Shown in pieces: positions 1-33,967 of a stretch of 42,815 nt of DNA. Under the pieces are notes generated by a model, which saw only the letters and a program-made list of their open reading frames with translations, was not told the origin of the DNA and made no database searches. The translations under genes were made by a program, and so were the position numbers. Where the stretch lies: contig JACQBP010000027.1 in NCBI GenBank assembly GCA_016194445.1, positions 1 to 42,815 on the forward strand, written 5' to 3'. This DNA comes from Candidatus Liptonbacteria bacterium. GTDB taxonomy: Bacteria; Patescibacteriota; Minisyncoccia; UBA6257; 2-01-FULL-56-20. Numbering within the stretch: the stretch's first letter is position 1; each line of letters starts with the position of its first letter.

Positions 1-558
1 AGGAGGTCGAACCGAAGAAAAACTTTCGATTATTTCTCGCAGTAACCCGAGGATTTTTTGCTCATCAATATAACCAACCAAAATTTTGAGCAAAACTTCG
101 TGATCGATATTTTCAAAAAACTTTCTGATATCGCATTTCAGAATCCAAACTGTGCGAGTATGGTTTCGGCTAACCTTGTAAGCCAAGGCTCGAAAACGGT
201 TGATCGCCGTGTGTGTCCCTTTATTTAAGCGACAGGAGAAAGAATCCGCGGTGAATAACCTGTCAAAAAAAGGATAAAGTTTTCGGTAAATTGCGTGATG
301 AAGCAAACGATCATGGACAGAAGCTTTATGAATATTTCTTGGCTTCGGATCAGAGATGTTGAAGGCTACGTAACCGCCATGGGCGTAAGAGAAGTTTACA
401 AGCGCCCTATGAAGCGTTAGGATGTTATCCATTAACCTTAGCCCAAATTCCTGAATGTCGCGCTTACCGCGTTTCCCGCGCAAAAATTCCCGCCAGGCCA
501 GAAGCAAGTTATCAACCGATATAATCTCTTCATAAATCAGCCCAAACTTTCTTTTCAT
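1..558 (-). CDS. Reverse transcriptase of DGR cassette 1 (N-terminal part; runs off the left window edge)
   Basis: Open minus frame from ATG at 558 to position 1, 186 codons with no stop, absent from the ORF track: MKRKFGLIYEEIISVDNLLLAWREFLRGKRGKRDIQEFG...SDPKPRNIHKASVHDRLLHHAIYRKLYPFFDRLFTADSFSCRLNKGTHTAINRF...VWILKCDIRKFFENIDHEVLLKIL. This matches the N-terminal and palm-1 regions of group II/DGR-type RTs. The YxDD box would lie outside the window. Confidence 0.9.
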   Translation of the reverse strand, partial: MKRKFGLIYEEIISVDNLLLAWREFLRGKRGKRDIQEFGLRLMDNILTLHRALVNFSYAHGGYVAFNISDPKPRNIHKASVHDRLLHHAIYRKLYPFFDRLFTADSFSCRLNKGTHTAINRFRALAYKVSRNHTRTVWILKCDIRKFFENIDHEVLLKILVGYIDEQKILGLLREIIESFSSVRPP

Positions 559-593: not shown

Positions 594-926
594 TTGACCA
601 TTATCCAAAGATTAATCTCGAGCTACAAGCTCTGGCAGGATTTCCTACGCCACTTTCCGAAGACTTCCAGATACACGCTTGGCGAAAAAATCGATCGCCT
701 CTTTATTGAAATTCTTGAGCTCACCCTGGAAGCGAGTTACTTACCAAGAAACAGGAAAGCTCCGTCAATCGAGAAAGCTGTCATCAAGTTAGGATCCTTA
801 AAATTCTTCTTGCAAGTTGCTTGGGAAATTAAGGCTCTCAAAACCAGTCAGTATGCCTTAGTTTCCGAAAAAATCGATGAAATTGGCAGGATGCTAGGCG
901 GATGGTTAAAACAAATATTAAGCTAA
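594..926 (+). CDS. avd: DGR accessory variability determinant, Avd-like four-helix bundle
   Basis: 110 aa with Avd-type signatures (FPKTSRYTLGEKIDRLFIEILELTLEASY...SEKIDEIGRMLGGWLK). TTG start; lies between the RT and the TR but on the opposite strand. Confidence 0.87.
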   Translation: MTIIQRLISSYKLWQDFLRHFPKTSRYTLGEKIDRLFIEILELTLEASYLPRNRKAPSIEKAVIKLGSLKFFLQVAWEIKALKTSQYALVSEKIDEIGRMLGGWLKQILS

Positions 927-932
927 AGCAAA

Positions 933-952
933 ACCCCGCAGAAATGCGGGGT
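933..952 (-). terminator. Hairpin just 3' of TR1 (terminator-like for the TR transcript)
   Basis: ACCCCGCA-GAAA-TGCGGGGT, perfect 8-bp stem. On the minus strand it is followed by TTTTGC. Confidence 0.6.
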
Positions 953-968
953 AAAGCAAAGCCAATTT

Positions 969-1106
969 CTGACGGCGGCAAAACGATAGAAGCCGCCCCA
1001 CCCGTCGTCAACCCAGCGCAAACGCAGGTCACGCTCCGCATCATTCCGATTGAGGTAAGGAACGTTCCAGTTGCCGTTCGAGTTCTGCCAACGCGAACCA
1101 ATGTTT
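969..1106 (-). other. DGR template repeat TR1
   Basis: Aligns without gaps to 1511-1648 (offset 542). Over 969-1101 there are 15 mismatches, 13 at T on + (A in coding orientation). Minus-strand reading is Asn-rich: IGSRWQNSNGNWNVPYLNRNDAERDLRLRWVDDGWGGFYRFAAV. Confidence 0.92.
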
Positions 1107-1136
1107 AGAATGTCATCTACGCCACTGTTCCTCGAA

Positions 1137-1167
1137 AAAATCTTGGAACTGTATCTAATTTGGGATC
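1137..1167 (-). promoter_or_regulatory. Conserved block 5' of TR1
   Basis: aaaatcttggaactgtatctaatttgggatc matches 32916-32946 in cassette 2 at 27/31; 35 nt from the TR edge versus 36 nt in cassette 2. Confidence 0.6.
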
Positions 1168-1451
1168 TCATTCAGTAGATGATTCACCAGAATCACTCTG
1201 GGAGCTGACCTACTGGGCTAAATCCTCCAACATCCTAAACCAAGTAGCTTTGTTTTTGAAGAATCTGGTTGCGACACTGGAGCAAGAAATATCCGACCCC
1301 ACTCTGCGCTTTTCTTGACCTAAAAAATCCTAAATTAGGAAACCGATTCTAGAATTCGGCCGCTTGAAGCCGTGGCCGCAAGCTTACGAGCCTACTATCC
1401 GTTTAGTATTTTAAAATAATTCTCGGGTTTTTCAAAATTTAAAATAAGAAA

Positions 1452-1503: not shown

Positions 1504-2115
1504 CTACTTGCTGACGGCGGCAAAACGATAGATGCCGCCCCACCCGACGTCAACCCAGCGCAAACGCAGGGCACGCTCCGCATCATGCCGAGCGAGGGCA
1601 GGAACGAGCCAGCGGCCGTGCGAGTGCAGCCAACGCGAACCAAGCGCGACCACTGGAAATTCTCGCTGAAGATCGGGGTGCTTCTCGCCGAGCGCGAGCA
1701 GTTCCGGTAGTTCGGCGGGTCGAAGTCCGAGTTTGTCGAGCTCACAAAGGACGTCGTCGGTGGTCATATCTCGTTCAAAATGGACGAGCTGGACTCCGAC
1801 TTCGGCTGTGTCGTTTCGCTTCGACGGGAAGTGGTCTTGGGTAATATCACTGTTTACCCAATCGTACTTTCCAGCCGCGATTCCATCCGCCACGCTCCGG
1901 TCATAGTTGATCGAGAGGGTATAGGTGGGGAATTTCGGCTTGCTCGATTCCAAAATCATTTCCGCAAATCTTTCGATCAGCGGACTTTCCTCGGTAACCG
2001 CGGCGTGGAAATCCGCGTCGCTGATTCCCCGTTTCTGGCGGGCTTTTTCAAGCGCCGACCAGAAACCAGTGATCAAACCGGCGCCGCTCACCGTTGCGGG
2101 AACACTCTTTGCCAT
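1504..2115 (-). CDS. DGR target (variable) protein 1, C-type-lectin-like C-terminus
   Basis: Start MAKSVPATVSGAG at 2115 preceded by AAAGGAG; the tracked ORF start at 2139 is upstream. The C-terminus LGLRPAELPELLALGEKHPDLQREFPVVALGSRWLHSHGRWLVPALARHDAERALRLRWVDVGWGGIYRFAAVSK carries VR1 and looks like DGR variable proteins. Confidence 0.87.
   Translation of the reverse strand: MAKSVPATVSGAGLITGFWSALEKARQKRGISDADFHAAVTEESPLIERFAEMILESSKPKFPTYTLSINYDRSVADGIAAGKYDWVNSDITQDHFPSKRNDTAEVGVQLVHFERDMTTDDVLCELDKLGLRPAELPELLALGEKHPDLQREFPVVALGSRWLHSHGRWLVPALARHDAERALRLRWVDVGWGGIYRFAAVSK
1511..1648 (-). other. DGR variable repeat VR1
   Basis: See TR1. Lies at the 3' end of the target CDS; the stop codon is at 1504-1506. 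Confidence 0.92.
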
Positions 2116-2349
2116 TTCTTGCTCCTTTGTTTGGCTCACCCCTCATCCCGACCCCATGTCGAGACCCCAGGCAAACCTTCAATATACCAAAAGCATCTTA
2201 TCACACCCAATCCAATCCGTCAATAGCTTCATTTCTCCTTTATTTACGGGCTCTAACTTGCGTTTCCACCCTCTATCCCCTCACTCACTCCAATGTAAGG
2301 AAATTTCGCTTTCCGAAACCCCCATTTTTTACAAACTCACTGCCTTAGT

Positions 2350-32383: not shown

Positions 32384-32746
32384 TTGCCCATACTCGAAAA
32401 GACGAAAAGCGCTTATTTTATATGGTACCGTTTCTACCAAATCCTCCCCAAACCCCATCGACACACGCTGGGCGCAAAAATTGACGTTATCTTTGCTGAT
32501 ATTATAGAAGCTATTACCACCGCTGTCTTTCTCTCTCGCGAAGACAAACTTCCTTGGGTTCGTCTCGCTATTAGAAAAATGGATTTGCTAAAAGTTTTCC
32601 TATTGATTTTATGGGAAACAAAATCAATCGATAACAAAAAGTATATCGCCCTGTCAACAGAGTTAGATAAAATCGGCAAAATGCTCGGCGGCTGGAGCGG
32701 TCAACTTACAAAACAAAACTCCCCTAGAAAGCAAGGGGAGAAATAA
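32384..32746 (+). CDS. avd: Avd-like protein, DGR cassette 2
   Basis: LPKPHRHTLGAKIDVIFADIIEAITTAVFLSREDKLPWVRLAIRKMDLLKVFLLILWETKSIDNKKYIALSTELDKIGKMLGGWSGQL; parallels cassette 1 Avd. Confidence 0.85.
   Translation: MPILEKTKSAYFIWYRFYQILPKPHRHTLGAKIDVIFADIIEAITTAVFLSREDKLPWVRLAIRKMDLLKVFLLILWETKSIDNKKYIALSTELDKIGKMLGGWSGQLTKQNSPRKQGEK
32719..32740 (-). terminator. Hairpin 3' of TR2 (terminator-like)
   Basis: CTCCCC...GGGGAG; minus strand continues TTTTGTTTTG. Confidence 0.6.
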
Positions 32747-32752
32747 AGCGAG

Positions 32753-32879
32753 TTGCGAGACGGCGAAGGCAAAGCCATTCTCACGATTCCACTTGTTGTC
32801 AGGATTGTCGAAGCACGTGTTGAGCCATCGGCCGTCATCATTCCGGTTCGCGTTCAGAAGTTTCGGATCACCGTCAGAA
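32753..32879 (-). other. DGR template repeat TR2
   Basis: 127 bp, ungapped alignment to 33220-33346 (offset 467): 17 mismatches, 16 at T on + (A in coding orientation). Confidence 0.93.
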
Positions 32880-32915
32880 ACGCGAGGAATATCACCCATT
32901 TCACTGCTCTTTGAT

Positions 32916-32946
32916 AAAATCTTGGAGCTGAATCTAATTCGGCATC
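32916..32946 (-). promoter_or_regulatory. Conserved block 5' of TR2
   Basis: aaaatcttggagctgaatctaattcggcatc; see 1137-1167. Confidence 0.6.
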
Positions 32947-33132
32947 GCAATGCCCTAATACTCCTCGCCAAGTAACTTTATTTTTTAAAGTCATTATGCG
33001 TCACGCTATCCGAAATCTTAATCGCGGATATTCCGGACATAAAACAACTTGGATTCGGTAGCAGGAAACCATGATCTCCCGCGTATTCACCTAATACCAA
33101 ACGAAGCATATACCATTTCCAATATAAAAATC

Positions 33133-33165
33133 TAGCTCCGTTCCGAAAAATCCGGAACGGAGCTA
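33133..33165 (-). terminator. Terminator downstream of DGR target 2
   Basis: TAGCTCCGTTCCG-AAAAATC-CGGAACGGAGCTA; minus strand continues GATTTTTA. Confidence 0.75.
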
Positions 33166-33201: not shown

Positions 33202-33837
33202 CTAAGCGTTGAGTGCTACTTGCGAGACGGCGAAGGCAAAGCCACTCCCACGATACCACTCGTTGTCAGGACTGTCGAAGCACGTGCCGAGCCATCGGCC
33301 GTCAACAATCCGGCCCGCGTCCAGAAGCGACGAATCACCGCCAGAATCCTTGATGGGTTCATGCATGGCGACGATCCAGATCAGCCCCATGGCTTCGATC
33401 TCCTTGTCCGTGAATTTCTCGCGGATGAGGCAGGCCAGTTCGGCGTTCGGCTTAGTCAGCTTGCGACGTTCGGCCTCGGCGCGAATCTTCTTCGTGATCC
33501 GGTCGTTGTCCTCGAAGAGCATGCCCTTGAGAACGGCGACTTCGGTCGTCACGCCGTTGGTCGGCTTGAAGTCCGGCGAACGGAGCACCTGCTTGGCGTA
33601 GTTTCCGACGCGGAAGCCTTTGCTCTCGAGCCGGGTGATCCAGTCCTCGCCGGTCGTGCCATCGCTGGTGACCGAGAAGTATATCACGCCATCTTTCTCA
33701 CGCCACGAGCGGGTCGATTCGGAAACCGAGAGTTCGTCGCGGAGAAAACGGAGCGCCATGTCGTGGCCACCGAGCTTCTTGACGATGGCATTGAGTTGAC
33801 CGGCGGTGAGGCCGGCGGATGCGAATTCTGTGCTCAT
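33202..33837 (-). CDS. DGR target (variable) protein 2
   Basis: Start MSTEFASAGLTAGQLNAIVKKLGGHDMALRFL at 33837 with GGGAGGTTTT upstream; C-terminal VR2 SLLDAGRIVDGRWLGTCFDSPDNEWYRGSGFAFAVSQVALNA. Confidence 0.88.
   Translation of the reverse strand: MSTEFASAGLTAGQLNAIVKKLGGHDMALRFLRDELSVSESTRSWREKDGVIYFSVTSDGTTGEDWITRLESKGFRVGNYAKQVLRSPDFKPTNGVTTEVAVLKGMLFEDNDRITKKIRAEAERRKLTKPNAELACLIREKFTDKEIEAMGLIWIVAMHEPIKDSGGDSSLLDAGRIVDGRWLGTCFDSPDNEWYRGSGFAFAVSQVALNA
33220..33346 (-). other. DGR variable repeat VR2
   Basis: See TR2. Confidence 0.93.
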
Positions 33838-33902
33838 AAAACCTCCCTCGCGCTTCTGTGCGCGTTTCATTTCCCTCTGTGCCGAGGAGGCACCATGAAC
33901 CG

Positions 33903-33967
33903 TCATTGGTCATAGCGAGGAATGGCCTTCCGCCAGCTGGCGGATCAAGCCACTTTTCGCTATGACC
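33903..33967. repeat. Inverted repeat upstream of DGR target 2
   Basis: TTGGTCATAGCGA ... TCGCTATGACCAA (13-bp arms). Confidence 0.6.

What the first reader, a model, noticed from the sequence alone, without database searches (positions are those of the whole stretch)
1137..1167. 31-nt block conserved between cassettes at fixed distance 5' of the TR
1137-1167 and 32916-32946 match 27/31 and lie 35 and 36 nt from the TR edges, while the intervening sequence and the TRs themselves are not similar. This suggests a functional part of the TR transcript (its promoter, or a cis element recognised by RT/Avd). The shared minus-strand peptide IR[YF]SSKI[FL]S is probably coincidental, as neither ORF extends meaningfully.
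Basis: seen in the sequence. Interest (0 to 1): 0.72.

Follow-up and report, generated by a model that had tools for sequence, protein, structure and literature searches.

The report
Structured 5' domain of DGR template RNA
The short conserved block is the core of a folded RNA domain attached to the 5' end of the template RNA that these tiny uncultured bacteria copy, with deliberate errors, to diversify a protein; the fold is conserved in this group (Patescibacteria) and ends exactly where the copied template begins, so it probably loads the copying enzyme and marks where copying stops.

Summary
On the minus strand, 1137-1167 is the P2 3' strand, a conserved junction and the P3 5' strand of a three-way-junction RNA directly 5' of the DGR template repeat (TR). 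The whole leader is homologous between cassettes, not only the 31 nt. Loci found only by their reverse transcriptase (RT) carry the same RNA: 28 of 28 (E 1e-17 to 1e-25). In 69 sequences 95.1% of paired cells are standard pairs (73.3% shuffled). In a tree-based null, all 14 significant column pairs fall in the proposed helices. TR/VR homology starts a median 2 nt after helix P1. A second domain (9/9 significant pairs), a promoter -10 box upstream and a terminator hairpin after the TR (73/81 loci, opposite strand 2/81) make the TR RNA a separate, about 390-470 nt noncoding RNA antisense to avd. RT-less cassettes, two in this genome, keep it. A 6-9 bp helix (PC) also joins both TR flanks, giving a retron-like topology. 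Rfam has no such family. Likely function: RT-Avd loading and template boundary (inferred). Promoter and coding readings of the block are rejected.

The parts
1137..1167 (-). the 31-nt block: P2 3' strand (1163-1167), conserved junction J2/3 (1150-1162), P3 5' strand (1145-1149) and 5' half of the P3 loop
32916..32946 (-). the same block of cassette 2 (P2 3' strand 32941-32945, J2/3 32929-32940, P3 5' strand 32924-32928)
1097..1248 (-). core RNA domain of TR RNA 1: ACTTG linker, P1, P2, P3 (covariance model R1 hit, 90 bits)
32876..32976 (-). core RNA domain of TR RNA 2 (covariance model R1 hit, 93 bits)
1229..1240 (-). P1 5' strand, TR RNA 1
1103..1114 (-). P1 3' strand, TR RNA 1; abuts the TR 5' edge (1 nt gap)
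32957..32968 (-). P1 5' strand, TR RNA 2
32882..32893 (-). P1 3' strand, TR RNA 2; 2-3 nt from the TR edge
1127..1131 (-). P3 3' strand, TR RNA 1 (pairs with 1145-1149)
32906..32909 (-). P3 3' strand, TR RNA 2
1241..1246 (-). conserved linker (T)ACTTG between PC and P1 (candidate priming site, inferred)
1247..1257 (-). PC 5' strand, complementary to the segment 3' of the TR (953-962)
953..962 (-). PC 3' strand, just 3' of TR1
32976..32983 (-). PC 5' strand, TR RNA 2
32741..32748 (-). PC 3' strand, TR RNA 2
1278..1301 (-). PB hairpin of domain A, TR RNA 1
32994..33042 (-). domain A (PA stem 33038-33042/32994-32998 with PB hairpin), TR RNA 2
1362..1383 (-). 5'-most hairpin PD, TR RNA 1 (loop motif also seen in PB)
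33061..33082 (-). 5'-most hairpin PD, TR RNA 2
1405..1410 (-). promoter -10-like box (AATACT) before the conserved 5' start GGATAGTAGG (1391-1400)
33107..33112 (-). promoter -10-like box (TATATG) before the conserved 5' start GGTATTAGG (33090-33098)
934..951 (-). terminator-like hairpin followed by a T-run on the TR strand only, end of TR RNA 1
32719..32740 (-). terminator-like hairpin, end of TR RNA 2
927..1400 (-). inferred whole TR RNA 1 (about 474 nt)
   Evidence: inferred
32709..33098 (-). inferred whole TR RNA 2 (about 390 nt)
   Evidence: inferred
966..1101 (-). template repeat TR1 (14 of 16 TR/VR mismatches at TR adenines)
32752..32878 (-). template repeat TR2 (16 of 17 mismatches at adenines)
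1508..1643 (-). variable repeat VR1 in target gene 1504-2139(-)
33219..33345 (-). variable repeat VR2 in target gene 33202-33906(-)
594..926 (+). avd 1 (Pfam bAvd, E 1.2e-15), opposite strand to TR and RT
32384..32746 (+). avd 2 (Pfam bAvd, E 7.5e-10, just below cut-off)
1..558 (-). DGR reverse transcriptase, N-terminal part (contig ends; continues on contig C11)
32132..32464 (-). C-terminal remnant of a second reverse transcriptase

Best explanation
The block is the core of a conserved, structured 5' domain of the DGR template RNA of a Patescibacteria lineage. SHOWN by comparative sequence: the leader folds into P1 enclosing hairpins P2 and P3 with conserved junctions; a second domain (PA/PB) lies upstream; P1 ends where the TR begins; a -10-like box lies upstream and a terminator-like hairpin follows the TR, antisense to avd. 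INFERRED: the TR RNA is made as a separate noncoding RNA from its own promoter; RT-Avd recognises the leader, also when the RT gene is elsewhere in the genome; the RT copies the TR from its 3' edge and is stopped at the base of P1, which sets the 5' limit of the copied segment (a template-boundary element); and the PC helix, which holds the two TR flanks together, positions the start of copying.
For: Independent MFE folds of most of the 12 family members give the same shape. On A2: 94.3% of cells paired against 73.6% shuffled, and slid registers reach at most about 50%. All 28 RT loci fetched by RT protein alone carry the RNA. A blind phylum scan finds it in 62 of 380 genomes, and all ten same-class genomes listed there besides the own genome also appear as RT-positive. 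69 sequences: 95.1% against 73.3%, 22 of 24 pairs with double changes. Tree-aware null: 14/14 and 9/9 significant pairs lie in the proposed helices, none outside, among about 4,700 each. TR/VR homology starts a median 2 nt after P1 in 64 loci; 1101 of 1150 mismatches at A. Layout TR RNA / inverted avd / RT in 85 of 92 loci; the other 7 keep the RNA without an RT. Terminator on the TR strand 73/81, opposite 2/81. Extended -10 box before a conserved start. Several RTs of about 46-51% identity still have a diverged version at the same place. PC: matched duplexes -7.65 against -5.71 +/- 0.21 kcal/mol permuted, 0 of 2000; with an independent 3' register 65.6% against 60.4%, best of 500 permutations 62.6%.
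Against: No RNA or biochemical data: transcription, RNP formation, stopping at P1 and priming are all inferred. PC is short and A/T-rich; its pairing is significant by permutation, but no single column pair reached significance in the tree-aware test, where the 3' flank was not well aligned. The RT of cassette 1 looks interrupted in this assembly, so this genome's copies may not be active. Nothing shows that RT or Avd touches this RNA.
Confidence: 0.8

Rival explanations
1. The block is a DNA element: promoter of the TR transcript, or a protein-binding site.
For: Conserved at a fixed distance from the TR.
Against: The conserved feature is a nested set of compensated base pairs, which DNA binding does not need. 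The -10-like box lies further upstream, next to a conserved transcript start.
Confidence: 0.03
2. The block is coding: a short peptide or an upstream extension of the TR reading frame, left from the target gene the TR was copied from.
For: In both cassettes the block is in frame with the TR and the differences look conservative.
Against: Leader open in the TR frame in 40/80 loci, the same as other frames (35.5); the TR/VR homology ends at P1.
Confidence: 0.02
3. The leader is a regulatory RNA (riboswitch or attenuator) that controls expression of the RT gene downstream on the same strand.
For: RT lies downstream on the same strand in 85 of 92 loci, and a terminator hairpin lies between.
Against: RT-less cassettes keep leader plus TR; avd, in the opposite direction, separates them; P1 abuts the TR edge rather than the terminator.
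Confidence: 0.07
4. The RNA is a retron-like self-primed template: a nucleotide of the ACTTG linker, set against the TR 3' edge by the PC helix, primes the cDNA, so the primer lies 5' of the template instead of 3' as in BPP-1. (A sharper form of the best explanation, not an exclusive alternative.)
For: PC helix; TR bounded by P1 on one side and PC on the other; the same order as retron msr-msd RNA as described in PMC6868368.
Against: No priming data; the retron AGC motif is absent; the RT is of DGR type; the 3' hairpin could also provide a primer.
Confidence: 0.35
5. The leader, not the 3' spacer, is the functional equivalent of the BPP-1 Sp structure and only recruits RT-Avd; the TR 5' end is set in another way.
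For: The 3' spacer is reduced to a terminator hairpin, whereas in BPP-1 the 3' spacer recruits bRT-Avd (PMC12875486).
Against: The coincidence of the P1 end and the TR start in 64 loci would then be unexplained.
Confidence: 0.2

Closest known systems
Bordetella phage BPP-1 DGR TR RNA (bRT, Avd, Sp spacer)
   Same: TR copied by a DGR RT with Avd; flanking RNA matters: a 3' spacer structure recruits bRT-Avd and a motif 5' of the TR ends cDNA synthesis (PMC12875486 citing Handa 2018 and 2025).
   Different: In BPP-1 the TR follows avd directly (5' flank is avd coding sequence) and a 144-nt spacer precedes brt. Here avd is inverted, the conserved folded domain lies 5' of the TR, the 3' side is a short terminator-like hairpin, and model R1 finds nothing significant in BPP-1 (best E 0.059, not next to the TR).
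Patescibacteria (CPR) DGRs, clade 2 of Roux et al. 2021
   Same: Restricted to Patescibacteria and cellular (PMC8144416); probably the lineage studied here, though the clade number was not tested.
   Different: That paper does not mention RNA structure or secondary structure (text search).
Retron msr-msd RNA
   Same: 5' structured part, 3' template part, ends of the RNA paired, copying thought to be ended by RNA structure (PMC6868368).
   Different: Template is a mutagenised TR homologous to a gene; DGR RT with Avd; no AGC priming motif; additional 5' domains; no msDNA evidence.
Template boundary helix of telomerase RNA (from general knowledge)
   Same: A helix next to the template's 5' edge limits reverse transcription.
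   Different: Unrelated RNA and enzyme; the role here is inferred from position only.

Membership tests
Diversity-generating retroelement | TR/VR pair with mismatches at TR adenines | tested here: met
   (1101 of 1150 mismatches at A over 64 loci)
Diversity-generating retroelement | reverse transcriptase in the cassette | tested here: met
   Cassette 1: RVT_1, homologous to known DGR RTs including BPP-1 brt; cassette 2 has only a remnant
Diversity-generating retroelement | Avd accessory protein | tested here: met
   bAvd E 1.2e-15 and 7.5e-10 (the second just below cut-off)
Diversity-generating retroelement | C-type lectin fold in the variable protein | not tested
   Pfam gave no family; no structure was predicted
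BPP-1-type template RNA | long structured spacer 3' of the TR | tested here: not met
   only a terminator-like hairpin between TR and the avd stop
BPP-1-type template RNA | upstream element that ends cDNA synthesis at the TR 5' end | not testable with these tools
   P1 lies at the right place; function needs an assay
Retron ncRNA | complementary 5' and 3' segments enclosing structured part and template | tested here: met
   PC helix, permutation tests; single column pairs not significant
Retron ncRNA | priming G in a conserved (T)AGC next to the 5' pairing strand | tested here: not met
   the conserved linker is ACTTG
Retron ncRNA | retron RT with VTG in region Y | not tested
   the RT is of DGR type by homology; the region Y motif was not examined
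Any Rfam 15 family | covariance model match at gathering score | tested here: not met

The most novel reading that the evidence does not exclude
A widespread Patescibacteria DGR lineage uses a stand-alone, retron-like template RNA: a 5' structured domain that loads RT-Avd, a PC helix that sets a primer in the 5' leader against the TR 3' edge, and P1 that stops the RT at the TR 5' edge; one RT serves several such RNAs in trans.
Probability: 0.33. Interest if true: 0.9.

Novelty: new variant of a known kind. Interest (0 to 1): 0.78.

Why it matters
DGRs are unusually common in these uncultured bacteria, and how the RT finds its template and where copying starts and stops was worked out in detail for one phage system whose layout differs. 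A covarying RNA at a fixed place gives a defined minimal template RNA, a sensitive covariance model for finding TRs (including RT-less ones), and a direct test of whether RNA structure sets the limits of the mutated segment. It would also help in designing transplantable targeted-diversification tools. If the primer lies 5' of the template, DGRs and retrons share a priming topology.

Tried and rejected
Peptide reading of the block: rejected. Promoter reading: rejected. A pseudoknot between ACTTGG and the P3 loop was considered by eye but no such column pair was significant. A flank-to-flank duplex search in six phage DGRs gave nothing beyond shuffles. R1 finds nothing convincing in BPP-1 and the other phage DGRs even without filters. 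Rfam has no family. Key papers on the BPP-1 RNP (Handa 2018, 2025) and CPR DGRs (Paul 2017) are not held, so their exact RNA claims could not be checked. Viral contigs gave one distant RT only, and R1 did not hit it. The PC column test with a poorly aligned 3' flank was uninformative and the pairing was tested again with an independent 3' register.

Full report
OBSERVATION. The two stretches match 27/31, unlikely by chance, and the pattern occurs nowhere else in the genome. The adenine-biased TR/VR mismatches are on the minus strand, so the block lies 5' of the TR in the TR RNA: TR1 966-1101, VR1 1508-1643, avd1 594-926 on the plus strand, RT1 1-558 on the minus strand; TR2 32752-32878, VR2 33219-33345, avd2 32384-32746, with only a remnant of a second RT.

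RELATIVES. The RT fragment found DGRs in 21 of 38 family genomes and 146 of 383 class genomes. Named relatives are Candidatus Yanofskybacteria, Taylorbacteria, Nomurabacteria, Moranbacteria, Giovannonibacteria and other Parcubacteria/Paceibacteria. Aligning the 140 nt 5' of the TR of family members showed that the block is part of a conserved leader in 12 of them, the two window cassettes included.

STRUCTURE. Single-sequence folds of most members show the same long-range stem closing the leader right before the TR. The model has P1 (12 bp), P2 and P3, with conserved junctions close to GAATACGATACA (J2/3) and GGTGGCGCAGATGG (J3/1). P1 is very variable in sequence, yet 97.9% of its cells pair in the first 12 sequences. 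The block is the P2 3' strand, J2/3 and the P3 5' strand.

BLIND TESTS. Covariance model R1 was built from the 12. All 28 new class-level loci that had been fetched by RT protein alone carry a match at E 1e-17 to 1e-25. A scan of 380 phylum genomes gave 62 positives; all ten same-class genomes listed there besides the own genome also appear as RT-positive. With 69 sequences: 95.1% paired against 73.3% shuffled, covariation score 0.721 against 0.277, slid registers at most 0.208. Because shuffles ignore relatedness, a tree-aware null in the manner of R-scape was written: 14 significant column pairs, all in the proposed helices; for the upstream domain A, 9 of 9, in helices that an unbiased column scan had found. 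More distant RTs (about 46-51% identity) still have a diverged copy at the same place, with weaker and in some cases not significant scores. Phage DGRs, BPP-1 included, gave no convincing match.

PLACE. In 64 loci the TR/VR homology begins a median 2 nt 3' of the P1 strand; 96% of the mismatches are at A. On the other side, a segment just 3' of the TR is complementary to the segment just 5' of the conserved linker ACTTG (helix PC). Matched pairs are better than permuted ones by about 9 standard deviations, and the result holds when the 3' segment is aligned from its own sequence only, although no single column pair was significant in the tree-aware test. So the TR is bounded by P1 at its 5' edge and PC at its 3' edge.

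TRANSCRIPT. Upstream of the core come domain A (PA/PB) and hairpin PD, which shares its loop motif with PB, then a conserved start GGWAGTAGG preceded 6-7 nt upstream by an extended -10-like box. After the TR a terminator-like hairpin with a T-run lies on the TR strand in 73 of 81 loci and on the opposite strand in 2. The inferred RNAs are 927-1400 and 32709-33098. Of 92 loci, 85 have avd inverted and RT on the TR strand downstream; 7 have no RT within reach and 4 of these no avd, yet the RNA is kept. In this genome a third TR RNA on contig C45 has neither, so one RT may serve several RNAs in trans (inferred).

MECHANISM. Shown: a conserved, covarying RNA at a fixed place in the DGR cassette. 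Inferred: it loads RT-Avd (analogy with the BPP-1 spacer; PMC12875486), P1 stops the RT at the TR 5' edge, PC sets the start. The order PC5'-linker-structured part-template-PC3' is that of retron RNA (PMC6868368), but the retron priming motif is absent and priming is untested. Works like: a retron RNA in topology, a template boundary in position. Is: a DGR template RNA, a variant with its folded domain 5' instead of 3' of the TR.

REJECTED. Coding: leader open in the TR frame in 40/80 loci against 35.5 in other frames. Promoter: the block is well inside the transcript.

LIMITS. No expression or biochemical data; the main BPP-1 structure papers were not available; the RT of cassette 1 appears interrupted in this assembly. 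Rfam has no family for the RNA, and the searches of the held library found no description of it.

Noticed in passing
window 1-558 and L091 (contig C11) 2579-3203: The RT of cassette 1 runs off the contig and continues on C11, where the frame ends soon after the YADD motif while the C-terminal motifs lie in another frame with a tandem LPDHRVLRTATKRRM repeat: a decayed RT or an assembly error.
   Followed up: partly
L090 1-710 (contig C45 of the same genome): A third TR RNA with leader, TR, terminator and part of a VR but no avd and no RT: an orphan template.
   Followed up: yes
L090 765-3194: A short 5' fragment of a metG-like gene, then an ORF of 273 aa that looks like a LAGLIDADG homing endonuclease (by eye), then an intact metG-like gene.
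   Followed up: no
L093 7878-7977 and L094 2205-2305: Further TR RNAs without a neighbouring RT in genomes that have an RT elsewhere, suggesting that RTs act in trans.
   Followed up: partly
window 1362-1383 and 1278-1301 (and 33061-33082, 33008-33029): Hairpins PD and PB of the TR RNA share a loop motif close to GRYYACGGYTT in many relatives, as if duplicated; possibly two binding sites for one protein.
   Followed up: no
window 33133-33165 and about 1452-1480: Hairpins 3' of the VRs (13-bp perfect stem in cassette 2), likely both the DGR target stem-loop and the terminator of the target gene.
   Followed up: no
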